From a virus: 30,413 bases of DNA. The position numbers were made by a program, and so were the translations under genes. Shown one piece after another: positions 13,230 through 29,315 of the stretch (the stretch's first letter is position 1; every line of letters starts with the position of its first letter). Location of the stretch: positions 1-30,413 of the IMG/VR virus record IMGVR_UViG_3300033233_000129, one strand, 5' to 3'. The notes under the pieces are model-generated. The model had not been told where the DNA came from, ran no database searches, and was given only the letters and a program-made list of their open reading frames with translations.

Positions 13230-13760
13230 GTGAGTGAGTGCGCCGACACCACGACGAGCGTGACGCCCGAGAAGGCGCTCCTGATTCTGGAGCCCTACTT
13301 CCTGGCGATGCAGGAGACGTTTGTGGGCGCTGGGCTGGATGCGGCGAAGCGCGTGCAGCTCTACGTCGCGCCGTCGATGCACGACTCGCCGCGGCACTTC
13401 GCGGGCACGCGCGACGACGGCATCGTGGTGATGCTGGCCCCTGAAATGGTCGAGCTGCCGGAGAACACCGTGGCGGCCATCATCGCGCACGAGTTCGGGC
13501 ACGCGGCCGACTTCCTGTACCCAGGGGAGTTTGCGCTCGGGCCGGAGCGGGTGGCGATGCGGCGTAACCGCTCCGCCTTCGACGGGGACGACCACTGGGC
13601 GCGGTGGGTGAAGGAATGGGAGAAACGCGACGACGACGTGGTGGAGTTCGTCGCCGACGCAATCGCGGAGATGGTGACGGGGCGACGCATCGGCTACACG
13701 GGACCGTGCAAGCTGCAAGCGTTCGACCGAGGCAAGGCGCGGCCGCAAGGGCTGCGGTGA
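13230..13760 (+). CDS. HExxH zinc metalloprotease-like protein
   Basis: GTG start; GGAGGC just upstream may help initiation. H87-E88-F-G-H91 in I-I-A-H-E-F-G-H-A-A-D-F is the classical zinc-protease signature, with E88 as the catalytic base. Downstream D-D-V-V-E-F-V-A-D-A-I-A-E-M (about 136-148) offers acidic residues for the third ligand, as in gluzincins and the ImmA/IrrE group. Residues 43-72 give the expected edge strands (V-Q-L-Y-V-A-P; G-I-V-V-M-L-A-P). A phage peptidase of this size may process structural proteins or degrade a host regulator. Its substrate is unknown; a link with the TPNA-containing protein at 25-26 kb is only a suggestion. Confidence 0.65.
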   Translation: MSECADTTTSVTPEKALLILEPYFLAMQETFVGAGLDAAKRVQLYVAPSMHDSPRHFAGTRDDGIVVMLAPEMVELPENTVAAIIAHEFGHAADFLYPGEFALGPERVAMRRNRSAFDGDDHWARWVKEWEKRDDDVVEFVADAIAEMVTGRRIGYTGPCKLQAFDRGKARPQGLR

Positions 13761-15891: not shown

Positions 15892-17052
15892 ATGCTTCGC
15901 GTCTACCGCTACCGCCTCTACCCGACGACCGCTCAGGCCGAGCGGATGGAGTGGACGCTCTGGCGGCTCCGCGAGCTGTACAACGCGGCGCTCGACGAGC
16001 GCATCACGGCCTACCGACGAGCTGGCAAGTCGCTCTCCGGCTACGACCAGATGCGGGAGATCAAGGCCGTGCGCGAAGCGCGTCCAGAGTACGCCGCGAT
16101 TCACGTCCACCTGCTCCAGGACGTCCTCACGCGGCTGGAGCGCGCATACCGGGCCTTCTTCCGGCGCATCAAGGCAGGAGAGAAACCGGGCTTCCCGCGC
16201 TTCAAAGGGAGGGGCAGCTACACGAGCTTCACGTTCAAGGACGCGAAGAACCGGAACGGCGTTGCCTTCGACGCGAAGACCAAGCGCCTCCGTCTCACTG
16301 GCATCGGCGAGGTCAAAGTCAAGCTACACCGGAAGCCCGAGGGTACGCTCAAGCAGGTCACCGTTACGTTGGGCGGTGACGGGCATTGGTACGCTTGCCT
16401 CTCGTGCGACGACGTGCCAACGAAGCCGTTGCCAGCAACTGGCGAGGCCGTGGGCATCGACGTCGGTATCACGACGTTCGCTGCGCTGTCCGACGGCACG
16501 ATGGTCGCGAACCCGCGGCACTACGAGCGAACGCAAGCGGCGCTGCGCCGGAAGCGGCGTGTGGTTGCGCGCCGGAAGCGTGGCGGGAATCGGCGCCGCA
16601 AGGCCGTTGTCGTCCTCCGCGCCCATCACGACCGCGTGCGGCGCACCAGGCTCGACTTCCACCACAAGACGGCGCTCGGTGTCGTGCGGCGCTTCGACCG
16701 CATCGCCGTCGAAGATCTCAACGTCACGGGGCTCGCGATGGGGCGGCTCGCGAAACAGGTTCAAGACGCCGCGTGGGCGCAGTTCACTCGCATCCTCGAA
16801 TCCAAGGCAGAATGCGCCGGGAGAGAGTTCGTGCGGGTGGACCCACGTGGGACGTCGCAGCGCTGTAGCGGATGCGGGGCCGTCGTCCCGAAGAAGCTCA
16901 GCGTCAGAGTTCACGATTGTCCGAGCTGCAAGCTCGTCCTGGATAGGGACGAGAACGCAGCGCGGAACATCAAACGGCTGGGGCACAGCCGTCGGGGAGG
17001 GATGAGCAGTGGCTCGCCCGGTGAACCGAGAAGCCCCTCCCTCGCCTTCTGA
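15892..17052 (+). CDS. tnpB: RNA-guided nuclease TnpB
   Basis: 386 residues, normal length for TnpB, ancestor of Cas12. The N-terminal half (L-R-V-Y-R-Y-R-L-Y-P-T, then N-A-A-L-D-E-R, then P-G-F-P-R-F-K) forms the usual RNA- and DNA-binding domains. The RuvC nuclease is complete: D190 in G-I-D-V-G-I, E274 in I-A-V-E-D-L-N-V and D353 in D-R-D-E-N-A-A-R-N. The zinc finger C325-S-G-C328 ... C343-P-S-C346 is intact. TnpB uses an RNA from the element's right end to cut DNA next to a short target motif, which helps keep the element in place. The 3' end of the gene overlaps the right-end hairpin. Nothing suggests inactivation. Confidence 0.92.
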   Translation: MLRVYRYRLYPTTAQAERMEWTLWRLRELYNAALDERITAYRRAGKSLSGYDQMREIKAVREARPEYAAIHVHLLQDVLTRLERAYRAFFRRIKAGEKPGFPRFKGRGSYTSFTFKDAKNRNGVAFDAKTKRLRLTGIGEVKVKLHRKPEGTLKQVTVTLGGDGHWYACLSCDDVPTKPLPATGEAVGIDVGITTFAALSDGTMVANPRHYERTQAALRRKRRVVARRKRGGNRRRKAVVVLRAHHDRVRRTRLDFHHKTALGVVRRFDRIAVEDLNVTGLAMGRLAKQVQDAAWAQFTRILESKAECAGREFVRVDPRGTSQRCSGCGAVVPKKLSVRVHDCPSCKLVLDRDENAARNIKRLGHSRRGGMSSGSPGEPRSPSLAF

Positions 17053-17399: not shown

Positions 17400-17429
17400 T
17401 TGTGGAGCAGGGCGGACGGTCGCTAGGCT
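17400..17429 (+). promoter_or_regulatory. leaderless promoter of the first fibre gene
   Basis: A GAAAAG element (17394-17399) precedes TTGTGG (17400-17405); an 18-base spacer leads to TAGGCT (17424-17429), and the ATG follows after 8 nt. The gene therefore probably starts at ATG 17438 rather than at the in-frame GTG 17402. Confidence 0.6.
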
Positions 17430-17437
17430 TCGGGGCC

Positions 17438-18922
17438 ATGGCGACCCCGTTCCAGAGCTTCCCTGCTGCGCTGCTCGTCCTTTCGCCACGCCTCACGCGG
17501 ACGGGGAGCCCCGACGCTTCGGTCGAGGGGATCAACACGACCACGCTGGGGGACGGATGCTGGTGCTACTGCGCGGAGAACAAGGGGGAGTACCAGCTCG
17601 ACAAGCAGGACAACACGACGCCGCCCGACGGCAACACGGTCATCGCGCCGACGACGGGGCCCGGCCGCTGGAAGCTCTTTTCGGGCAGCGGCGGCGGCGC
17701 GTGCCCTGCGCTCTCGCGGGTCTACTACGTGGACGCGAGCACGACCACACCGCTGGCGAACCAGACCGGTGCGAGCTGCGCCCCGTTCGCATCGATCCAG
17801 CAAGCGATCGACGCGGTGCCAGTGCGGACCACGATATTCGACGTGACCGTACCGTGGACGTTCAGGATCGCGCCCGGCATCTACGACGAGGACATCACGC
17901 TCCGAGACGACGGCGTCGTGGTGCTGGAGGCGATCGGCAACCCGGGTGCGCCGTTCTTGCTGGACATCGCGGTGCTCCTGTTCGACCCGATCGGGCTCGC
18001 TCCGCACAACATCACCGTCCAGGGAATGCCGCTATTGACAGGCTCTCCCTTCGCAGTGGCGACGTTCCGCAACTTCCTCTTTGGCGACATGCTCCGCACG
18101 GGCGACGATGCGGAAATCGCAATCGTATTCGACGCCAGCTTTGCGTTCGGCACGATCGATGGTCAGCCTGGTACCGGTGAACTCAGTTCGATCGGTCTGA
18201 CGAACGGGACCAGCGTCGCCACGGCCCTCACGGCCACGCACCTCCTGATGAAGAACGGTGCGACGGTCGCTGGCCCTGCGACCACAGGTGGGGCCACGAT
18301 CCTGGACGACAGCCAAGTGCTGGAGTTGACCGGCCTGACCTCTGCTGCGGGCGGCGTCGGTCTCGTGGACTCGGCGGTCGTGATGCTGACGCTTCCGGCT
18401 GCGCCCGCTGGAGTGGGCGGCACGGTTCAGAATAGCCGCATCCAGGCGATCACGGGCGACGCTTCGGCGCTGGCCTTCGACAACTTCTCGACCGGCTGGT
18501 ACGCAGCGGGCGCCCCCGCTGGGCTCGACTCGACGCTGGCATACCAGCAGTTCTACTCGTCGGAGGCGCCGTCTGGAGGACGGTTCATCGTTCTGAATGC
18601 TGGGGACATCACGCCCGTCACCATCGCCAGGGACGGAGTGAACCCGTGGCTTCCGAACGTCTACATGCTGGCTCCTCCGGTGGCTACGGTCAGCATGCTA
18701 CTGCTGCCGCCGCTGCCCGACTGGTTCGGCGGCGCTCAGTACGTCACGCCAGGGCTCGTGACGTTCTCGCGGGAACTGATCGTGAAGAACCGTGGGTTGG
18801 GTACGGTATCGATCGTGCCGCAGGCTGGCGAGTTCATCAACGGAGGCGGGGCCCTCGCGGTGCCTCCCGGAGCCACGGTCACGCTGCTCGCCTTGAAGGG
18901 CGTAGACTGGGAGACAATCTGA
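17438..18922 (+). CDS. tail fibre/spike protein 1: shared N-module plus beta-rich body
   Basis: 494 residues. The first ~80 residues (F-Q-S-F-P-A-A-L-L-V-L-S-P-R-L-T-R-T-G-S; A-S-V-E-G-I-N-T-T-T-L-G-D-G; E-N-K-G-E-Y-Q-L-D; G-N-T-V-I-A-P-T-T-G-P-G-R-W) are shared with two later genes and probably attach the protein to the virion. A Ser/Gly linker follows, then V-Y-Y-V-D-A-S-T-T-T-P ... F-A-S-I-Q-Q-A-I-D-A-V, the typical opening of a pectate-lyase-type parallel beta-helix, continuing with many short Val/Ile/Gly/Asn strands. Trimeric spikes of this kind bind or degrade surface polysaccharide. No catalytic residues can be assigned. Confidence 0.7.
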   Translation: MATPFQSFPAALLVLSPRLTRTGSPDASVEGINTTTLGDGCWCYCAENKGEYQLDKQDNTTPPDGNTVIAPTTGPGRWKLFSGSGGGACPALSRVYYVDASTTTPLANQTGASCAPFASIQQAIDAVPVRTTIFDVTVPWTFRIAPGIYDEDITLRDDGVVVLEAIGNPGAPFLLDIAVLLFDPIGLAPHNITVQGMPLLTGSPFAVATFRNFLFGDMLRTGDDAEIAIVFDASFAFGTIDGQPGTGELSSIGLTNGTSVATALTATHLLMKNGATVAGPATTGGATILDDSQVLELTGLTSAAGGVGLVDSAVVMLTLPAAPAGVGGTVQNSRIQAITGDASALAFDNFSTGWYAAGAPAGLDSTLAYQQFYSSEAPSGGRFIVLNAGDITPVTIARDGVNPWLPNVYMLAPPVATVSMLLLPPLPDWFGGAQYVTPGLVTFSRELIVKNRGLGTVSIVPQAGEFINGGGALAVPPGATVTLLALKGVDWETI

Positions 18923-19239
18923 TGTTCGACGTCAAGACGGCTTTCAAGGACACGGTCAAGGCTGCGCGGGCGGGGTTCGACAAGCTACCGGAGGAGGAGC
19001 GGACCGTGGACGCCTACCGTCGGGAGCTGCTCGCTGCCGGTGAGACGCAGCGCGAGAAGCTGCTCGACGAGGTGAAGGCGCAGGTGCTCGCCAACCCAGG
19101 CCCACTGCTCACGCGGGCGGTACGTCCGGCTCCGCCGCCTGCATCACCGGCACCGGTCACGGCGCCCGCACCGGCCGCGAGTAGACCGTTCGACCTCCCG
19201 ACGCTGCCGACCGTGCGATTCAACGACGGATCCCGATGA
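18922..19239 (+). CDS. hypothetical protein between fibre genes, 105 aa
   Basis: ATG shares one base with the previous stop (TGATG). The N-terminal 55 residues are helical and charged (F-K-D-T-V-K-A-A-R-A-G-F-D-K-L-P-E-E-E; D-A-Y-R-R-E-L-L-A-A-G-E-T-Q-R-E-K-L-L). A Pro/Ala linker (about 68-88) follows, then F-D-L-P-T-L-P-T-V-R-F. It overlaps the next fibre gene by four bases. It could be a fibre chaperone or adaptor by position only. Confidence 0.45.
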   Translation: MFDVKTAFKDTVKAARAGFDKLPEEERTVDAYRRELLAAGETQREKLLDEVKAQVLANPGPLLTRAVRPAPPPASPAPVTAPAPAASRPFDLPTLPTVRFNDGSR

Positions 19240-20435
19240 ACTTCCAGAGCTTCCCGCCCAGCCTGCTGATCCTGAGTCCTCGTCTCACGCGGACGGGCAG
19301 CCCTGACGCTTCGGTCGAGGGGCTCAACACGACCACGCTGGGGGACGGAGCGGTCGTCTACTGCGCAGAGAACAAGGGGGAGTACCAGCTCGACCGCACC
19401 AGCACGGCCGTGCCCGACGGCAACACGGTCATCGCGCCGACGACGGGCCCTGGGCGGTGGCTGCTGCTGGCTGGTGGAGGTGGCGCGGGCGGCCCTCCCT
19501 GGACCGTGCTGAAGGTCGTGGACGTGGGCACGACCGTCCCGGTGCCGGACCAGAACGGCAGCGCGGACTTCCCGTACGGAACGATTCAGGCGGCGGTCGA
19601 TGCGGGGGCCACGCGGCTCATGCTCGTCGGTGGGCCCAGCGCGGAGAACGTCGTGGTGCCGGGCGGCGAGCTAGCCATCACCGTGGCGGATTTCCAAGCC
19701 TTCCCGGGCGCGATTGCCTCGGTCACCTTCTCCGCCCCGGGCAGCTTCTCGGCACAACTCGCCGGGCGCATCGGCGCGATCACGATGCCGGACAACTCCG
19801 CAGTGGATCTGCGAAACTGCGACCAAGTCGGCACACTTACGCTCGGGAACAAAGCCTTCGCTCGGCTGGAAGGTACTGCCGTAGACACCTTTCTCGGCGG
19901 CAATAACTGCACCCTCGTGACCGACCGGGACGTGGACGACGCCACGTTCGGGACCTCCGGCACGCTGATGATCACTGGTCCCTCTCCCAAGAGCAACGGA
20001 GCGGGCGGCGATCTCTGCAACCTGGGTAACGTCACGATGCCCGGTATCTGCACCGTGATCGGCGCCAACCTCCGTTTCGACATCGGCAAGACACTGAACA
20101 CTGGGGGTTACGTCGAACTGACCGCCGCTCAGGTGGACGGGGACATCACGTGCGACTCACTGGACCTGATCAGTTGTAGAAAGACTTTAGGCAACGTCAG
20201 TTGCGCGAACTTCCGGTTCCGGGAGTCCGAAATCAACGGCGGGACGATCACCTGTACGGGCGTGTTGCCGTCGCTGATCAACACGCGCTGCCAGCCGCCG
20301 ACGGTGTTCGCCAACAACCCCGCCCCGGGCACCTTCTTCCTCGACGGCTACTCGAACTACTGGATCAAGCTGTTCGGTGTCCCCGTAGCCGGCTCGCCCG
20401 CCTCGAAGGTCATCACCGAGGATCTGATCCCGTAA
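19236..20435 (+). CDS. tail fibre/spike protein 2: shared N-module plus beta-rich body
   Basis: 399 residues. The N-terminal ~80 residues nearly match those of fibre 1, and the DNA is also highly similar there (17500-17560 against 19282-19350), pointing to recent duplication or recombination. After a Gly/Ala linker comes V-L-K-V-V-D-V-G-T-T-V-P-V, then F-P-Y-G-T-I-Q-A-A-V-D-A-G-A, the same beta-helix opening pattern, followed by repeating T-L-T-L-G-N, V-T-M-P-G and I-T-C-D-S strands. The end differs fully from fibre 1. Probably an alternative receptor-binding spike. Confidence 0.7.
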   Translation: MNFQSFPPSLLILSPRLTRTGSPDASVEGLNTTTLGDGAVVYCAENKGEYQLDRTSTAVPDGNTVIAPTTGPGRWLLLAGGGGAGGPPWTVLKVVDVGTTVPVPDQNGSADFPYGTIQAAVDAGATRLMLVGGPSAENVVVPGGELAITVADFQAFPGAIASVTFSAPGSFSAQLAGRIGAITMPDNSAVDLRNCDQVGTLTLGNKAFARLEGTAVDTFLGGNNCTLVTDRDVDDATFGTSGTLMITGPSPKSNGAGGDLCNLGNVTMPGICTVIGANLRFDIGKTLNTGGYVELTAAQVDGDITCDSLDLISCRKTLGNVSCANFRFRESEINGGTITCTGVLPSLINTRCQPPTVFANNPAPGTFFLDGYSNYWIKLFGVPVAGSPASKVITEDLIP

Positions 20436-20456: not shown

Positions 20457-21275
20457 ATGCTGCTGAAGCCTGCTCCCGCTGACTGGCGCGTGCTCGCGAT
20501 CGGGCTGTCCGGCCACGACGTGGCCGCGTGGCAGAACGTGCTCCGCCTGGAAGCCCGACCCGAGGCATGGACAGGTAACTGGCCACTCGCGGCCGACGGG
20601 TCGTTCGGGCCGATGACGCAGGCGGCCACCCGCGCGTTCCAGATGCGGCGTGGCCTGACGACGACGGGGATCGTGGATCCCTCCACGCGGGCGTTCGTCG
20701 ATCCCACGCTGTTCGCCACGGCCGTGCCGCTGCTACCGGGCGGCGACCTGCCGATCACGTTCGTGCAGGCCAAGGAGTGGCGGTGGGCGGACCGGAAGAC
20801 GGTGGACTGGATCGTCATCCACTCCGCCGAGGTCTGGGAGAAACCGAGCAGCGCCGAAGCGGTGGCGGCGTACTTTCGGAATCCGCACCCGCCCGCGAGC
20901 GCGCACTTCACGGTGGACTGCGATAGCATCGTCCAGTCGGTGAAGACCGAGCACATGGCGGCGCACGCGGGGCCGGCCAACCGCCGCAGCATCGGCATCG
21001 AGCAGGCGGGCTACGCCAAGCAGACGCGAGAGGAGTGGCTGGACGACTACGGCCAGCGGATGCTGCGCCTCGTGGCCCGCCTGGTGGCCAGGGAGGCGAA
21101 GACCTGGAGCATCCCGCTCGTGAAGCTCACCCCGACGGAGATGATCGCGGGGGCACGCGGGCTCTGTGGGCACGTGGACGTGAACGCGGCGTTCCCAGGG
21201 TCGAGCAAGCACTACGATCCAGGGCCGCACTACCCGTGGGATGTCCTTCTCCAGTGGGCCAAGGAGGCGGCGTGA
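20457..21275 (+). CDS. N-acetylmuramoyl-L-alanine amidase with peptidoglycan-binding domain
   Basis: 272 residues in two domains. Residues about 14-82 are a PG_binding_1 domain (G-H-D-V-A-A-W-Q-N-V-L-R; D-G-S-F-G-P-M-T-Q-A-A-T-R-A-F-Q; G-I-V-D-P-S-T). Residues about 115-262 are an Amidase_2 domain with zinc ligands H122 (I-H-S-A-E), H239 (C-G-H-V-D) and D254 (K-H-Y-D-P-G), plus E182 in G-I-E-Q, which suits the catalytic acidic residue. It cuts the bond between MurNAc and L-alanine in the cell wall. No signal peptide is seen, so release would need a holin or the virion. It sits among fibre genes and may be the endolysin or a virion-borne entry enzyme. Confidence 0.9.
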   Translation: MLLKPAPADWRVLAIGLSGHDVAAWQNVLRLEARPEAWTGNWPLAADGSFGPMTQAATRAFQMRRGLTTTGIVDPSTRAFVDPTLFATAVPLLPGGDLPITFVQAKEWRWADRKTVDWIVIHSAEVWEKPSSAEAVAAYFRNPHPPASAHFTVDCDSIVQSVKTEHMAAHAGPANRRSIGIEQAGYAKQTREEWLDDYGQRMLRLVARLVAREAKTWSIPLVKLTPTEMIAGARGLCGHVDVNAAFPGSSKHYDPGPHYPWDVLLQWAKEAA

Positions 21276-21781
21276 AACCGTACGCCCCGAACCGCAAGCG
21301 GACTCCGAAGGAGGAGCGGGAGTTTCAAGCCCAGCAGCAGAAGCTGTACCGTCCGGGATGGACGATGCCGAGCAAGCACTACACGCCGATCGGCGAGATC
21401 GTGAGCCGCGTGCACACGGCGACCGGGGATGTCGAAGGAGAGGTCCGAGCCGGCGGATTCGGTGGCGCCTCGGCCTCATTCGTCGCCCCGGGGGGGCGTG
21501 ACATCGAAGGTCATGCGCGCCGAGCGCTGGCAGCGGCGCAGCACAGGCCGAACGGTTCCGGCTACTACGTCTGGCCGCTCGCTCGCGGGTCCGACCAGCC
21601 GCTCGCGTCCGAAGGACCGTGGGGCCCCTACGCGCACCTGGACGAAGCCAAGACCTTCGCCCGCATCGGCGCCACCGAAGGCGCGCACGACCGCGCGGTG
21701 AGCCTGGGGCTTGACCCGAATGCGCCCAGCTTCCAGATCGTGCGGCGGTACGAAGCCGGCACGGGCGAACGCTTGCTGTAA
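21272..21781 (+). CDS. hypothetical protein, 169 aa, with a C-terminal phage domain
   Basis: GTG start sharing four bases with the amidase stop. It begins M-K-P-Y-A-P-N-R-K-R-T-P-K, close in style to the start of the minus-strand protein at 25-26 kb (M-R-Y-V-S-P-H-T-P-N-A-R-R). The C-terminal half (Y-Y-V-W-P-L-A-R-G; A-K-T-F-A-R-I-G-A; D-R-A-V-S-L-G-L-D-P; F-Q-I-V-R-R-Y-E-A-G-T-G-E-R) fits a small domain I recognise from other phage proteins, with no known role. It could be a virion-associated protein. No catalytic site is seen. Confidence 0.5.
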   Translation: MKPYAPNRKRTPKEEREFQAQQQKLYRPGWTMPSKHYTPIGEIVSRVHTATGDVEGEVRAGGFGGASASFVAPGGRDIEGHARRALAAAQHRPNGSGYYVWPLARGSDQPLASEGPWGPYAHLDEAKTFARIGATEGAHDRAVSLGLDPNAPSFQIVRRYEAGTGERLL

Positions 21782-21798
21782 CGAACCGAAGGTAGACC

Positions 21799-23379
21799 AT
21801 GAACTTTCAAGGATTCCCCCCCAGCCTGCTGATCCTGTCGCCCCGGTTGACGCGCACTGGTGACCCTGCCGCGAGCGTCCAGGGCATCAATACCACGACG
21901 CTGGCCGACGGCGCGCTCGTCTACTGCGAGGAGAACAAGGCGGAGTACCAGCTTGACCGCACGAGCGCGGCTGTCCCAGACGGTAACGTCGTCATCGCCC
22001 CCGTGGCGGGGCCGGGGCGATGGTTGAAGGTGCTGCCGGCGGGCGGCGGCGGCGCCTGCACGTCGAACAACCTCACGATCACCGGGCTCTACGCTTGCGC
22101 GGAGAATGACTCGAACACGGCCAGTGGCCAGGCGAGCTTTGCTATCGGCACGAGAACACTTGCGAGCGGCGATCACTCGCACTCCGAGGGGTTCGAGACG
22201 CAGGCAACGGGATATGCCGCCCACGCCGAGGGAGCCGGGTCCATCGCAAGCGGCGACGGCTCGCACGCTGAAGGCGTCGGCATAGCCAGCGGCGAATTGT
22301 CACACGCCGAAGGGAACGGGACGGCTAGCGGCGATAACTCGCACGCTGAAGGGGGTGGGGCGGCCAGCGGCAGTAGTTCTCACGCCGAGGGAATAGAGAC
22401 TCAGGCCACAGGCGATACGTCTCACGCCGAAGGTAATGATACTCAGGCCACGGGCGCGGCTTCGCACGCCGAGGGGCGTTCCGCTGACGGCTACCCGCAG
22501 GTCGCCAACGGCGCGGCGTCACACGTCGAAGGAACGGGAAACCGGGTGGATGGAGAGTCGGCGCACGCCGAAGGCGAACGCCACACCGTAGGGAACTCCC
22601 CGCAGCCCGCCACACTGGCCGCTGGCGGCACGACCATCACGATGGTTGGCGACCAGACGTTCCTGTTTCCGTTCGGTGCCGCAGGCGGCTCGGTGATCCT
22701 GGAGCCAACCGCGCCCGTCGCCGGTCCTCCGGTCACCGCGACCGTCATCGACTGCCCGGTCTGGAGCAGCGGTCCGAACGAAACGACCTTCACCCTCTCC
22801 GCGCCCATTGACGGAACAACGACCGGCGTGAACGTCTCTCTCCCCAACTGGGGCCGGGCGGCGCACGCCGAAGGGCTCGGGCACCTCGTCCTTGGCGCTG
22901 CGAGCAGCGCGAAGGGGATCGCCGCTACCGGGCTGTTCGGCAACACGATGTATCACGGCGGCGACGGTAGGGGTCAGTTCGGTCGATACGTCGCCTCGGG
23001 TGACCTGACCGGAGGCACAAGCGCGTTCGCCACCGCTCTCACGGTCTGGGCGGGCAGTCAGTCCCCTGCCGGCGCTAGCGGCATTGGCGCGCTGTACTTT
23101 CTCCGCACGACCTTCGTCGTGAACGATGAGACAGGCGGGGCCTGGTTCGCCGAGGAGCGCAGGACGCTGGTTCATGTGGACTCGGCGCGTGTGGTGACAG
23201 TCCTCACGGACGTAATTGCCTATACGGCGGATCCTATGGCTACCGGAATCACGACCGCCGTGGTTTCTGGAGGCACAGGAACGCTCGCACCAACGATCAC
23301 CTGGCCGGCGCCAACCGCGAACAACGAAACGTACGCAATCACGGTGGAGTGGACCCAGGTAAGCTCCGTTGCCGGCTAG
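21799..23379 (+). CDS. tail fibre/adhesin protein 3: shared N-module plus YadA-like repeats
   Basis: 526 residues from ATG, preceded by CGAAGGTAGACC. The first ~80 residues are a diverged copy of the module in fibres 1 and 2. Residues about 106-262 then hold at least ten repeats of the type A-x-G-x-x-S-H-A-E-G, the head repeat of trimeric autotransporter adhesins such as YadA, which folds as a left-handed beta-roll. The C-terminal part is beta-rich (G-G-T-T-I-T-M-V-G-D-Q-T-F; T-A-L-T-V-W-A-G-S-Q) and carries one more S/A-H-A-E-G near 355. It should form a trimeric receptor-binding fibre with a different surface from its relatives. Confidence 0.75.
   Translation: MNFQGFPPSLLILSPRLTRTGDPAASVQGINTTTLADGALVYCEENKAEYQLDRTSAAVPDGNVVIAPVAGPGRWLKVLPAGGGGACTSNNLTITGLYACAENDSNTASGQASFAIGTRTLASGDHSHSEGFETQATGYAAHAEGAGSIASGDGSHAEGVGIASGELSHAEGNGTASGDNSHAEGGGAASGSSSHAEGIETQATGDTSHAEGNDTQATGAASHAEGRSADGYPQVANGAASHVEGTGNRVDGESAHAEGERHTVGNSPQPATLAAGGTTITMVGDQTFLFPFGAAGGSVILEPTAPVAGPPVTATVIDCPVWSSGPNETTFTLSAPIDGTTTGVNVSLPNWGRAAHAEGLGHLVLGAASSAKGIAATGLFGNTMYHGGDGRGQFGRYVASGDLTGGTSAFATALTVWAGSQSPAGASGIGALYFLRTTFVVNDETGGAWFAEERRTLVHVDSARVVTVLTDVIAYTADPMATGITTAVVSGGTGTLAPTITWPAPTANNETYAITVEWTQVSSVAG
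22114..22587. repeat. coding repeat region: SHAEG adhesin repeats
   Basis: Degenerate repeats of about 30-45 bases around a core such as TCGCACGCCGAGGG or CTCACGCCGAAGG. The DNA copies differ at many third positions, so the protein pattern is kept by selection rather than by recent duplication. Confidence 0.65.
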
Positions 23380-25064: not shown

Positions 25065-26123
25065 TCACTGCCCGATCTTCGTGTCCACGTCGTCGTACTC
25101 GCCGTGCTCGGCGGCAGAGCGGAAGCTCTCCTCTAGCTGGCGCGCGGCCTCGCGGCGCGTCGGGACGTTGAACATCTGGTTCCAGGGGAGCGACGAGTGA
25201 TTCTCCTGCACGTAGCGGCGTGCGCCGGCCTCCGCGAGGTACTCGAACAGCTTGACGGCGAGCGCGGGGTCGTAGGAGCCCTTGCGCCACTTGCGGAGCG
25301 CGTTCAGGAGCACGCTGCGCCCCTGGCCGCGGGGGCCGCCGAGCGACAGGTCGGCGGTGTTGTCGATGAACAGGACCAGCTCGGTGGCCGCGTGGCGGTC
25401 CACTTCGCCCTTCGGTCCGGCGTTGGGGGTCAGAGGCGGGCTGTGCGGCCCCAGCGGCACTGCCCGCATTTCCTTGCCCTTCGCGTCCGTCCCGTACAGG
25501 AACCGCCCGTCGGGCGTCTCGGCCCAGCGGGGCTGCCCGAACAGCGCCCCCGCGATCACCGCCTGCGCGACGTGCCGGTTCGTCTCCGCGCTGAACACGT
25601 CGGACACCCACAGCCCGTCCGGGGTGAGCTGCTTCAGCACGTACTGGATCGGGCCGCCGTGCGCGTTGGGGGTGTGCTGCGGATGCGCGGCCTCGTGCCC
25701 CCTCGCATACCCCCGCTCCCACTCCTGGGCGCAGTAGTGGCACGTGCTCTCCGTCACGGACGGGACGACCGTGCCAGCGTGCGCCTCCTCGCCGCAGAGC
25801 GTGTGGCCGGGCCGTCCGGGCAGGTGCATGGTGCGCCCGTGACTGCTGGCGTTCGGCGTCTGCCCCGGGCCGATGATGTCCGCAAGGCTGACCAGGGAGA
25901 GCCAGCCAGGGCCGAAGTTGTTACGCACCTGTTGCAGCTCGGGCGAGTGGCGGCCACCGACCCGCGCGCGCTCAGACCTCCAGTCGTTCAACAGGTCGTC
26001 CTTCCACGCCGGGCCGTGCTCCCGGGCGTAGGTGAGCAGGGCCTCCCGCTGCGCGGCGGTGAGGACGGGATAGGACGGCTTCTGCCTACGAGCGTTCGGG
26101 GTGTGCGGGCTGACGTAGCGCAT
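25065..26123 (-). CDS. four-domain phage protein with TPNA linkers (possible polyprotein)
   Basis: The only minus-strand gene, 352 residues. T-P-N-A occurs at residues 8-11, 89-92, 151-154 and 232-235 and divides it into blocks. Block 1 (about 20-80) has Y-A-R-E-H-G-P-A-W-K-D-D-L and V-R-N-N-F-G-P-G-W-L, a pattern known from small phage proteins. Block 2 (about 96-140) has C110 and C128-H-Y-C131, a partial zinc site. Block 3 (about 157-230) contains the strands L-W-V-S-D-V-F and R-F-L-Y-G-T-D. Block 4 (about 245-340) has E-L-V-L-F-I-D-N, Y-D-P-A-L-A-V-K-L-F-E-Y and A-G-A-R-R-Y, another common small phage protein. The repeated T-P-N-A at block borders suggests linkers or cleavage sites. It has its own promoter and ends 10 bases from the convergent glycosyltransferase gene. 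Confidence 0.6.
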   Translation of the reverse strand: MRYVSPHTPNARRQKPSYPVLTAAQREALLTYAREHGPAWKDDLLNDWRSERARVGGRHSPELQQVRNNFGPGWLSLVSLADIIGPGQTPNASSHGRTMHLPGRPGHTLCGEEAHAGTVVPSVTESTCHYCAQEWERGYARGHEAAHPQHTPNAHGGPIQYVLKQLTPDGLWVSDVFSAETNRHVAQAVIAGALFGQPRWAETPDGRFLYGTDAKGKEMRAVPLGPHSPPLTPNAGPKGEVDRHAATELVLFIDNTADLSLGGPRGQGRSVLLNALRKWRKGSYDPALAVKLFEYLAEAGARRYVQENHSSLPWNQMFNVPTRREAARQLEESFRSAAEHGEYDDVDTKIGQ

Positions 26124-26179: not shown

Positions 26180-26736
26180 ATGGCCCATCAATCCCAACAG
26201 GATTTCTGCGAGCGCGTGAAGGCCCGGTTCCCCGCGTACTTCACGGGCACGACCGTGCTCGACTGCGGCAGCCTGGACATCAATGGCTCGAACCGGCCGC
26301 TGTTCGCGGGCGGGAGGTACACCGGCGTAGACATCGCGCCCGGTCGCAACGTCGATCTGGTGAGCGCGATCCACGACCTGAAGCTGGCCGACGGGGCGTT
26401 CGACGTGATCGTCTCGACCGAGTGCTTCGAGCACGATCGGCACTACGCGGACAGCCTGCGCAACATCGTGCGGATGCTGCGGGCTCGGGGGGGCTCCTGT
26501 TCTTCTCGTGCGCGACGACGGGGCGGCCCGAACACGGCACGCGGCGCGCGCACCCGGGCAGCTCCCCGCTGACGGCGCGCCTGCCGGGCTGGGGGGACTA
26601 CTACCGGAACCTGACCGAGCAGGACGTGCGCGAGGCCATCGACCTCACGGCCTTCGACAGCTACGAGTTCACGGCGAACGACGTGGACAAGGATCTGTAC
26701 TTCTGGGGGCTGAAACGGGGCTCTCCGGCGCCGTGA
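26180..26736 (+). CDS. class I SAM-dependent methyltransferase, frameshifted at a G7 tract
   Basis: From ATG 26180 the frame gives T-V-L-D-C-G-S-L (motif I, residues 25-32), Y-T-G-V-D51-I-A-P (acidic SAM-binding residue), and F-D-V-I-V-S-T-E-C-F-E-H (motif IV), typical of methyltransf_11. At the run of seven G (26487-26493) the frame is lost and this frame ends at 26572. The expected continuation, G-L-L-F-F-S-C-A-T-T-G-R-P-E-H-G, then P-G-W-G-D-Y-Y-R-N-L-T, is intact in another frame and ends at 26736. One extra G would restore a single protein of about 185 residues. The split may be phase variation, a real mutation, or a sequencing error. The substrate is unknown. Confidence 0.7.
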
Positions 26737-26785: not shown

Positions 26786-28384
26786 GTGGCACAGCTTCCC
26801 AAAGATCACGCCGGCACCCCGATTCTCGACCCCTCGGGTGGCGTGGGGCCGCAAGGCCCGCAAGGCCCGCAAGGCCCGCAAGGCCCGCAGGGGACAGCGG
26901 GGGCCAACGCGCTGCTCTTTGCGAACCCCGCGGCGGTCGCTGCCTTCGACGCGAGCGCGACGCCAAACCTGACGCTCGCGAGCGTCGGCGTGGTGAACGA
27001 CTCGTACCGGTACCTGACAGCGCCGTCTGCTGCACTCCTGGCTGCGGCAGACGGGGTGAACGTCATCGCGCCGAGCGCCCCGGCCGGTGCCGTGTTCGTG
27101 CGGCTCTACGAGCAGAACCTGGCAGCGCAGTACCAGGCGGCGTGGTTCCTCGATCCTGCGGGCAACGACGGCAACGACGGGCTCACTGCCCTCACGCCGC
27201 TGAAGACGATGCACGAGCTGTCCGTGCGGCTCCGAGGCGCGAAGATCGCCCAGAACGTGACCGTGACCCTGGCCGCTGGCGACTACTCGGCCGAGCCGGT
27301 GCAGTTCGACATGGAGATCGAGCAGGGCTTCTCCGTCCTGATGACCGGCTCCGTCTCGTCCGTCGGCGACACGATTGCGGCGATTCTGCCGACCGTGCCG
27401 GGCGCCGCGTCCACGAACGCAGGAGCGCAGCGCGGGACGGTCACCAGCACGACCCTGGCGTTCGCCGCTGGGGACGACCGCCGACGGCTCCGGCTCACCG
27501 GAGGCGCAAGCGTGGGCGCGATGGCGTTCATTACGCGCGTCGTGACGCCCGGCGTGGGCGGCGTCGTGAACGTGACCCGCTGGGGCCGGCTCACGAGCCC
27601 GCTCACGAGCACCATCGTCACGAACGTCGTGCCCACGGTCGGCACGGCCTACGCGATCGACACCCTGGACTCGCGCATTGGGTACCTGAACCTCCGCGTC
27701 CGAGGCCCGGGACGATTCGTCGTCCAGGATTGCCTGATCCGCCCCGCCGAGACGGTCACAGTCACGCACCGTGGGGTCTGCGACAACGGCAACCTCAACG
27801 GGGTGATGACCTACGGCTGCATCTACCAGGCGTCGGGCGCCGTCGTGTTCCAGGGATCGAACTTCACGATGGCGGTGTGCTCGCTCTCAAGCGACGTCGC
27901 GAACATCGCCGTCTCGCAGTCGTTCCTGTCGGCCCGCATGTGTGTCTGGACGGGCGCAGCGGCGGCCACGCTCACGATCCAGTCGGACTCCACCGTCCAG
28001 CAGAACGAGGCCGCCTGCCTCGACAACGTGAAGCTGCTCCTCCAGACCGCGGGCGTCTGGGATCAGATCGGCAGCGCAAGCAATGACATCCAGTACGTGG
28101 ACTGCACCGGCCCGAACGCCTGCGAGGTCGCCCCGACGGGTCAGTACTGGGCGCACTCGGCAACCGACCTTCAGTGGGGCCTGAACAACGCCTTCACCGC
28201 CGCGGCGTTCCTCATCTCGGGGCAGTACAACTACAGTTCCGCCATCCCGAGCGTGCCGGGTGGGACCACCGACTACTCGGTGGGCGGCACGACGGGCGCG
28301 TACGCGACCCTCCCTGTGATCAAGACTACGGCCGCCGCCGGAACCGTTGCCACGGGCGGCGCCCCTGCGGCGATGGTGGTGTAG
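26786..28384 (+). CDS. tail fibre protein with short collagen-like stalk
   Basis: 532 residues from GTG. The N-terminus ([15 protein letters not shown]) is nearly the same as in the gene at 28581 and probably anchors the fibre. Residues 21-35 are five G-P-Q triplets, a short collagen-like triple helix that would hold a trimer. The rest is beta-rich: A-W-F-L-D-P-A-G-N-D-G-N-D-G-L-T-A-L-T-P-L-K-T-M resembles the start of beta-helix phage spikes, followed by many V-T-V-T-L, V-V-N-V-T and C-T-G-P-N-A strands. Likely a receptor-binding fibre. The enzyme activity, if any, cannot be seen. Confidence 0.7.
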   Translation: MAQLPKDHAGTPILDPSGGVGPQGPQGPQGPQGPQGTAGANALLFANPAAVAAFDASATPNLTLASVGVVNDSYRYLTAPSAALLAAADGVNVIAPSAPAGAVFVRLYEQNLAAQYQAAWFLDPAGNDGNDGLTALTPLKTMHELSVRLRGAKIAQNVTVTLAAGDYSAEPVQFDMEIEQGFSVLMTGSVSSVGDTIAAILPTVPGAASTNAGAQRGTVTSTTLAFAAGDDRRRLRLTGGASVGAMAFITRVVTPGVGGVVNVTRWGRLTSPLTSTIVTNVVPTVGTAYAIDTLDSRIGYLNLRVRGPGRFVVQDCLIRPAETVTVTHRGVCDNGNLNGVMTYGCIYQASGAVVFQGSNFTMAVCSLSSDVANIAVSQSFLSARMCVWTGAAAATLTIQSDSTVQQNEAACLDNVKLLLQTAGVWDQIGSASNDIQYVDCTGPNACEVAPTGQYWAHSATDLQWGLNNAFTAAAFLISGQYNYSSAIPSVPGGTTDYSVGGTTGAYATLPVIKTTAAAGTVATGGAPAAMVV

Positions 28385-28580: not shown

Positions 28581-29315
28581 ATGTCGCAACTTCCGAAGGA
28601 CCATGCGGGAACGCCGATCCTTGACCCGGCTGGCGGCGCCGGGCCGCAGGGCCCGCAAGGCGCTCAGGGCTTCCCTGGGCCGCAGGGTCCGCAGGGTGAC
28701 ACTGGTCCGCAGGGCCCGCAGGGCGTCCCCGGAGCACAGGGCCCACAGGGCGCTCAGGGCCCACAGGGCGCTCAGGGCCCACAGGGCGCTCAGGGCCCGC
28801 AGGGTGACACTGGTCCGCAGGGCCCGCAGGGCGTCCCCGGAGCACAGGGCCCGCAGGGCGCTCAGGGCCCGCAGGGTGACACCGGAGCGCAGGGCCCACA
28901 GGGCACGACGGGAGCGCAGGGCCCGCAGGGCCCTGGCTCTACCCTCATGTGGGGCGCGAGCAGCGTGGCCGCCACCACGGCGACCCGCACGCTGTGGCCC
29001 TGGTACGAGAACGCGACCGCCCCGCTTCTCGCCGCTGTCATCCAGTGGCGCGTGCCGCGCGCCGGCACGATCCGCTTCATGCGCGTCCATGTGGGGACGA
29101 CCGCTGGGAACGGGAACCTCATCGTCTACACTCTCCGGGTGAACGGCGTCGCCTCCGCGCTCACGGTTTCGATGGCGTCCACCGCCGCCGACGGCTCCGA
29201 TCTGGTGAACAGCGTCCCCGTCGCTGCCGGTGATCTAGTGGACATCCTCGTGACCAAGGCGCTGGCCATCGGCACTTCGCCGTCCGACATTGCCTGCTCC
29301 ACGGAGTTCGACTGA
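28581..29315 (+). CDS. collagen-like tail fibre protein, 244 aa
   Basis: The N-terminus [15 protein letters not shown] matches the gene at 26786. Residues 21 to about 117 are about 32 Gly-X-Y triplets (G-P-Q, G-A-Q, G-D-T, G-V-P), forming a collagen-like triple helix. The C-terminal ~120 residues form a beta-sandwich-like knob ([38 protein letters not shown]). Collagen stalks in phages are trimeric spacers for such tips. It is preceded by AGCGGG, a weak ribosome site. Confidence 0.8.
28689..28852. repeat. direct DNA repeats in the collagen region
   Basis: A 56-base segment (28689-28744) recurs without mismatch at 28797-28852, 108 bases (36 residues) on. Between the copies lies an 18-base unit, CAGGGCGCTCAGGGCCCA, in three copies. 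Such repeats change stalk length by recombination. Confidence 0.75.

What the first reader, a model, noticed from the sequence alone, without database searches (positions are those of the whole stretch)
25065..26123. Minus-strand protein built from small phage domains separated by TPNA motifs
Seen: four T-P-N-A copies at residues 8, 89, 151 and 232, each at a border between differently patterned blocks; two of the blocks resemble stand-alone small phage proteins I recognise. A similar start (A-P-N-R-K-R) occurs in the protein at 21272. This looks like a fused polyprotein whose parts may be released by a protease, or beads joined by a standard linker. The gene stands alone in orientation and has its own promoter. 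The HExxH protein at 13230 is a possible partner, though nothing links them directly.
Basis: partly seen in the sequence, partly recalled or inferred. Interest (0 to 1): 0.7.

Follow-up and report, generated by a model that had tools for sequence, protein, structure and literature searches.

The report
Phage bead protein with PNA seams
This phage gene makes one protein out of several small, swappable domains, and in this phage and its relatives most of the joints between such domains carry the same short sequence (proline-asparagine-alanine or similar), as if it were a tear-off line or address tag for cargo proteins.

Summary
In detail: four TPNA copies (residues 8, 89, 151, 232; 0.006 expected) head four unrelated blocks; synonymous codons differ, so the repeat is at protein level. 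Block 1 is a widespread small phage/plasmid domain, fused in a Pseudomonas plasmid to ArdcN plus MPTase-PolyVal, a textbook polyvalent protein. Block 4 recurs in nine other viral contigs, block 2 in one; block 3 has no relative found. In related phages the bead genes are reshuffled, and [PRSV]-N-[ADGP] marks 17 of 28 homology-defined seams (4.8 expected); it also sits directly behind start codons. AlphaFold puts every TPNA in low-confidence coil between blocks. The same beads in unrelated viruses usually lack the tag (block 1: 1 of 34), so it belongs to the phage lineage, not the bead. The HExxH protein at 13230 is conserved in all five tagged relatives, not found in four unrelated contigs sharing block 4, and has the residues described for phage polyvalent zincins, but no Pfam match above cut-off. 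Best reading: a small polyvalent cargo protein whose beads carry a lineage-specific head tag, probably a processing site. Cleavage, packaging and the partnership are unproven; the 'own promoter' was not supported.

The parts
25065..26123 (-). 352-aa bead protein (P0001), the gene of the finding
   Evidence: MRYV start conserved in kin L082 and L081
26091..26102 (-). seam tag 1, TPNA residues 8-11, directly behind the start
   Evidence: coil, low pLDDT
25869..26081 (-). block 1, helical domain (residues about 15-85), stand-alone in phages/plasmids and N-terminal to ArdcN + MPTase-PolyVal in a Pseudomonas plasmid
   Evidence: pLDDT about 95
25848..25859 (-). seam tag 2, TPNA residues 89-92; EPNA at the homologous seam in G012
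25674..25847 (-). block 2 (residues 93-150), small H/C-rich bead (HTLCG...CHYC); 68% identical relative in G012 in a different bead order
25662..25673 (-). seam tag 3, TPNA residues 151-154
25431..25661 (-). block 3 (residues 155-231), predicted small alpha/beta domain, no relative found
   Evidence: absent from the relative in G012
25419..25430 (-). seam tag 4, TPNA residues 232-235; TPNA, SVNA, EPNA, RRNV at the homologous seam of G012, G011, G016, G013
25068..25418 (-). block 4 (residues 236-352), helical bead, C-terminal in all relatives of this phage lineage
   Evidence: helices with pLDDT 75-92
21272..21784 (+). second bead protein (169 aa): tag APN at residues 5-7 behind the start, HRPNG before the C-terminal GYYVW bead; interior beads differ in every relative
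13230..13760 (+). HExGH zincin-like protein, candidate processing peptidase

Best explanation
The gene encodes a small polyvalent-type cargo protein: four unrelated small domains in one chain, each headed by a short tag, T-P-N-A here and [PRSV]-N-[ADGP] in relatives. Phages of this lineage shuffle such beads between proteins at two conserved loci, the gene behind the endolysin and the minus-strand gene, keeping one C-terminal bead at each and swapping the rest. The tag is a protein-level signal belonging to the phage lineage, most likely the recognition site at which a phage peptidase (best candidate the HExGH protein at 13230) cuts at or next to Asn, removing the N-terminal leader and releasing the beads, probably proteins that travel in the virion and act early in the host. 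Shown: the tags, the bead shuffling, the seam enrichment, the position in coil, the lineage specificity, the conserved HExGH protein. Inferred: cleavage, the identity of the protease, packaging and ejection.
For: Four TPNA, 0.006 expected, different codons. The same beads occur in other orders in kin with the tag at the seam. In tagged kin 17 of 28 homology-defined seams hold [PRSV]N[ADGP] against 4.8 expected (P 0.0002). Among all dipeptides and gapped pairs, PN and NA rank first in an unbiased scan (z 5.8 and 5.4; family-wise 95% level 5.2). With one seam per bead family 6 of 11 against 2.3 (P 0.013). The tag is a property of the recipient: block-1 relatives in other phages and plasmids carry it 1 of 34 times, and block-4 relatives in four unrelated contigs lack the strict form. 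It also stands 4-8 residues behind the start of bead genes with good Shine-Dalgarno sites, and of a stand-alone core gene (YVAN / YTPN / YQPN in three relatives), where no domain precedes it, which a mere linker does not explain. Tags lie in low-confidence coil between blocks. Pro codons at the tags match background usage, so selection is on protein. A conserved leader ending HHF(A/S)(V/I)N precedes variable beads in four relatives. The HExGH protein is 52-88% conserved in all five tagged relatives and not found in the four untagged contigs. Zincin processing of polyvalent proteins was predicted before (PMC5512222).
Against: No experimental cleavage data. About 40% of seams lack a recognisable tag. 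The exact tetrapeptide is not enriched genome-wide. Many seams share ancestry, so the larger statistics overstate independence. The HExGH co-occurrence is confounded with phylogeny: other core genes (11210, 14777) show the same pattern. The HExGH protein matches Pfam Peptidase_M48 only below cut-off and not MPTase-PolyVal. No prohead protease of families S77 or S78 was found, though the S77 search had no positive control. No virion evidence for these proteins.
Confidence: 0.45

Rival explanations
1. Uncleaved bead string: PNA is a favoured flexible seam between independently folding domains, and the protein works as one multidomain chain.
For: Tags lie in coil between folded blocks; ArdC of pSa and TraC1 of RP4 are transferred full length (PMC5512222); no cleavage data; 40% of seams lack a clear tag.
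Against: The tag also precedes the first bead right behind the start codon and heads a stand-alone core gene; only 2-3 residues are conserved inside otherwise variable linker, unlike a generic linker.
Confidence: 0.3
2. Fusion relic: each bead was once a stand-alone gene starting with an N-terminal tag of this lineage (M-R-x-Y-x-P-N), for example for capsid targeting; fusions kept the tags without present function at internal seams.
For: Stand-alone and polyprotein genes start with the same tag (VREYQPN, VRAYRPN, VKPYAPN, MRRRMYQPN).
Against: Internal tags persist between relatives whose bead bodies have diverged to about 50-80% identity, with free synonymous change, which suggests selection.
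Confidence: 0.17
3. DNA-level recombination site: the conserved CCGAACG-like word guides bead exchange and the peptide is a by-product.
For: Many tags read CCG AAC G or CGG AAC G.
Against: Pro codons CCC, CCT, CCA and the Asn codon AAT also occur and match background usage; the tag also sits at protein starts.
Confidence: 0.05
4. Chance plus shared descent of two tagged bead families (GYYVW and block 4).
For: These two families supply 12 of the 28 homology-defined seams; one-per-family support is moderate (P 0.013).
Against: Four TPNA in one protein are already far beyond chance; at least six bead families have the tag.
Confidence: 0.03

Closest known systems
Polyvalent proteins (Iyer et al. 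2017, J Bacteriol, PMC5512222)
   Same: Multidomain proteins of phages and conjugative elements built from small shuffled domains, many also found alone; block 1 itself is fused to ArdcN and MPTase-PolyVal in a Pseudomonas plasmid; processing by HExxH zincins was proposed.
   Different: No ArdcN, zincin or other recognised catalytic domain in the same chain here; the candidate zincin is a separate protein; a lineage-specific peptide tag at the bead heads is not mentioned in the passages read (word searches for 'linker' and 'short motif' found nothing).
T4 internal proteins with capsid targeting sequence and gp21 cleavage (PMC9026906)
   Same: Conserved short leader plus variable small payload proteins; lineage-specific short cleavage motif (L/I-X-E).
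   Different: T4 cargo are single proteins, not strings; motif has Glu, not Asn; no S77 protease found here (without a positive control).
SPN3US / phiKZ head proteins cleaved by a prohead protease (PMC10052503)
   Same: Short motif (A-X-E) cleaved repeatedly in head and ejection proteins, N-terminal propeptides.
   Different: Different residue, no homologous protease identified, no virion data here.
Phage domain mosaicism (Smug et al. 2023, PMC10684548)
   Same: Ongoing shuffling of protein fragments between phage proteins.
   Different: That paper's text holds no mention of linkers, seams or polyproteins; here the seam itself carries a recurring motif.

Membership tests
Polyvalent proteins | Two or more unrelated domains in one chain in a phage or conjugative element | tested here: met
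   Blocks 1, 2 and 4 have relatives in other contexts; block 3 is a separate predicted fold
Polyvalent proteins | At least one domain shared with established polyvalent proteins | tested here: met
   Block 1 N-terminal to ArdcN and MPTase-PolyVal in L050
Polyvalent proteins | Domains of disparate known biochemical activity | tested here: inconclusive
   No convincing Pfam, NCBIfam or PDB match for any block
Polyvalent proteins | Carried in the virion or with the DNA into the host | not testable with these tools
   Needs virion proteomics
Phage-type polyvalent zincin (for the 13230 protein) | HExxH, Asp three residues downstream, upstream conserved His, downstream Glu | tested here: met
   H87 E88 G90 H91 D94 invariant in 9 sequences, H51, H56, E139 and E147 invariant too; features as described in PMC5512222; which His and Glu are the ones meant is not resolved
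Phage-type polyvalent zincin (for the 13230 protein) | Match to Pfam MPTase-PolyVal PF18818 | tested here: not met
   Not among matches at E up to 5; M48 at 0.013, below its cut-off
Prohead protease substrate of a known kind | Prohead protease S77 or S78 in the genome | tested here: inconclusive
   S78 not found in 10 records while controls rang; S77 not found, but the control genomes did not ring either; records may be fragments
T4-type internal proteins | Conserved N-terminal leader cleaved at a short motif, variable payload | tested here: inconclusive
   Leader ending HHF(A/S)(V/I)N in four relatives, reduced in the window; cleavage not testable

The most novel reading that the evidence does not exclude
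A lineage-specific seam code: a phage group marks cargo domains with a short Asn tag that a trans-acting phage zincin reads, and beads captured from other elements acquire the recipient's tag. A different, Glu-containing tag ([RS]E[ASG]) may play the same part in the unrelated contigs G019-G022 (P 0.017 for a motif picked by eye, not significant in the unbiased scan).
Probability: 0.33. Interest if true: 0.82.

Novelty: new variant of a known kind. Interest (0 to 1): 0.6.

Why it matters
Polyvalent proteins are thought to deliver early takeover and anti-defence activities, but how such chains are cut and how new domains are added is open. A recurring tag at most bead heads, tied to the phage lineage, gives a direct handle: it predicts bead boundaries, cleavage products and a protease-substrate pair that can be tested with two genes. 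It would also be a sequence flag for finding unknown injected proteins in uncultured phages.

Tried and rejected
Scans with P0001, block 4 alone and the 21272 protein as single sequences found almost nothing in viral contigs or genomes; alignments of block 1, the fibre N-termini and two beads were needed. tblastn of blocks 2-4 in named phages and of block 4 in plasmids: no match. Fold search of both models in the PDB: nothing at E below 0.001. A mixed alignment of block-1 and block-4 relatives misaligned block 1, so two separate structure runs were used. DNA-level motif idea: rejected by codon usage. Genome-wide tag enrichment in the 179-kb relative: PNA 12 against 8.8 expected, no real excess. 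The HRRN-rich basic protein of that relative (19 R[RK]N) may or may not be related to the tag. Literature searches for phage polyproteins gave nothing under those words; the polyvalent-protein paper came up through ArdC. Gene calls in kin contigs come from a simple ORF and codon-position script, not a gene finder.

Full report
Observation. The ORF at 26123..25065 on the minus strand encodes 352 aa with TPNA at residues 8, 89, 151 and 232. Composition predicts 0.006 copies, and any tetrapeptide reaching four copies appeared in 2 of 20,000 shuffles. Synonymous positions differ between copies, so the repetition is of peptide, not a recent DNA duplication. The start is supported by the same MRYV start in two relatives. 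No sigma-70-like promoter or terminator was found.

What the blocks are. Block 1 (residues 15-85) belongs to a family of about 60 residues with the pattern YAxEHGxxWK...LQQVRNxFGPxWL. It occurs alone or at the ends of other proteins in 36 viral loci, as a 68-aa protein beside a ParB-like gene in a Paracoccus plasmid, and as the N-terminal part of a 540-aa Pseudomonas plasmid protein whose other domains are ArdcN and MPTase-PolyVal. Block 2 is an H/C-rich bead found again in the relative G012, 68% identical. Block 4 is a helical bead found in nine other viral contigs, two of them distant. Block 3 has no relative found. None of the blocks has a convincing match in Pfam, NCBIfam or the solved structures.

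Kin phages. Helicase and fibre N-terminus searches and bead searches gave relatives of the window, among them contigs of 179, 138, 131, 38 and 23 kb (G011, G013, G018, G016, G012). They share core genes with the window, including 11210, 12759, 13230 and 14777. The contigs G019-G022 share little but block 4 and serve as an unrelated comparison.

Bead shuffling. The minus-strand gene reads leader + block 4 in G011; leader + bead + EPNA + block 2 + TPNA + block 4 in G012; leader + APN/VPNA beads + EPNA + block 4 in G016; TPNA + block 1 + TPNA + block 2 + TPNA + block 3 + TPNA + block 4 in the window. The gene behind the endolysin reads tag + variable beads + PNA/SNA + GYYVW bead in the window, L053, L055 and G012. 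The tag also stands immediately behind the start codon: VKPYAPN, VREYQSN, VRAYRPN, VREYQPN, each with a GGAG-type Shine-Dalgarno in front, and in a stand-alone core gene of three relatives (YVAN, YTPN, YQPN).

Statistics. Seams were defined by where BLAST homology begins between proteins of a closed network of about 30 bead proteins. In the tagged lineage 17 of 28 seams hold [PRSV]N[ADGP] within the seam window against 4.8 at random positions of the same proteins (P 0.0002); in the unrelated contigs 1 of 26 against 1.7. In an unbiased scan of all dipeptides and one-gap pairs PN and NA rank first (z 5.8 and 5.4; 95% family-wise level 5.2). Taking one seam per bead family, 6 of 11 against 2.3 (P 0.013). 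The seams overlap in ancestry, so the last figure is the fairest. Outside the lineage block 1 carries a tag in 1 of 34 cases.

Structure. Two AlphaFold runs with different alignments agree that blocks 1 and 4 fold as helical domains (pLDDT about 95 and 75-92 in the run that had their relatives) and that all four TPNA lie in coil; tags 2-4 lie in, or at the edge of, stretches with pLDDT below 50.

The HExxH protein. It is 53-89% identical to the window's copy across nine sequences with invariant H51, H56, H87-E88-x-G90-H91, D94, E139 and E147. Iyer et al. describe for phage-type polyvalent zincins a conserved upstream His, HEXXH, an Asp three residues downstream and a Glu in the next helix (PMC5512222). 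It is present in all five tagged relatives and not found in the four untagged contigs, but so are several other core genes, so this is association by lineage, not proof. Pfam M48 matches below cut-off; MPTase-PolyVal does not.

Mechanism. The most economical account is a small polyvalent-type cargo protein with processing tags. The strongest argument against a plain linker is the tag in front of the first bead and at the head of a stand-alone gene. The strongest argument against a fusion relic is the persistence of P-N-A while bead bodies diverge. Neither excludes these rivals. T4 internal proteins and SPN3US ejection proteins show that phages use short lineage-specific motifs for such processing (L/I-X-E, A-X-E; PMC9026906, PMC10052503), there with Glu; Asn would be new among these.

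A possible second tag. In G019-G022 many seams read SEAR, REAS, REG or RESS. The excess of [RS]E[ASG] is 9 against 4.4 (P 0.017), but the pattern was picked by eye and the unbiased scan does not find it. It is a lead only.

Verdict. The kind of protein is known (polyvalent proteins); the recurring lineage-specific seam tag was not found in the papers read and is the new part. Cleavage and the partner protease remain to be tested.

Noticed in passing
window 17402-18922, 19236-20435, 21799-23379: Three fibre-like proteins share the N-terminus FPxSLLxLSPRLTRTG...NTTTLxDG with unrelated remainders; relatives carry two or more copies too.
   Followed up: partly
window 21799-23379: Repeated SHAEG motifs resembling the head repeats of trimeric adhesins (from memory, not tested).
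   Followed up: no
window 26180-26736: Methyltransferase-like reading frame appears split over two frames near 26500; sequencing error or real shift not decided.
   Followed up: no
window 26786-28384 and 28581-29315: Two collagen-like proteins with the same start ([14 protein letters not shown]) followed by GPQGPQG repeats.
   Followed up: no
window 15892-17052: TnpB/OrfB-like transposon protein between structural-looking genes, recognised by eye only.
   Followed up: no
L060 16327-18567 (G011, 179-kb relative): Very basic 746-aa protein with many HRRN and 19 R[RK]N motifs in tandem, function unknown.
   Followed up: partly
L060 18542-19471 and homologues G013 104125-104877, G018 50493-51248: A 250-aa core protein 80% identical between relatives that are otherwise about 40% alike, no PHROG or Pfam match; candidate major virion protein of a poorly known phage group.
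   Followed up: partly
L060 3278-6553 (G011): ComM/YifB-like Mg-chelatase ATPase fused to tag-bearing bead-like tails.
   Followed up: partly
L129, L122, L118, L126 (G022, G020, G019, G021): Long bead proteins of an unrelated virus group whose seams often read SEAR/REAS/REG, possibly another lineage tag.
   Followed up: partly
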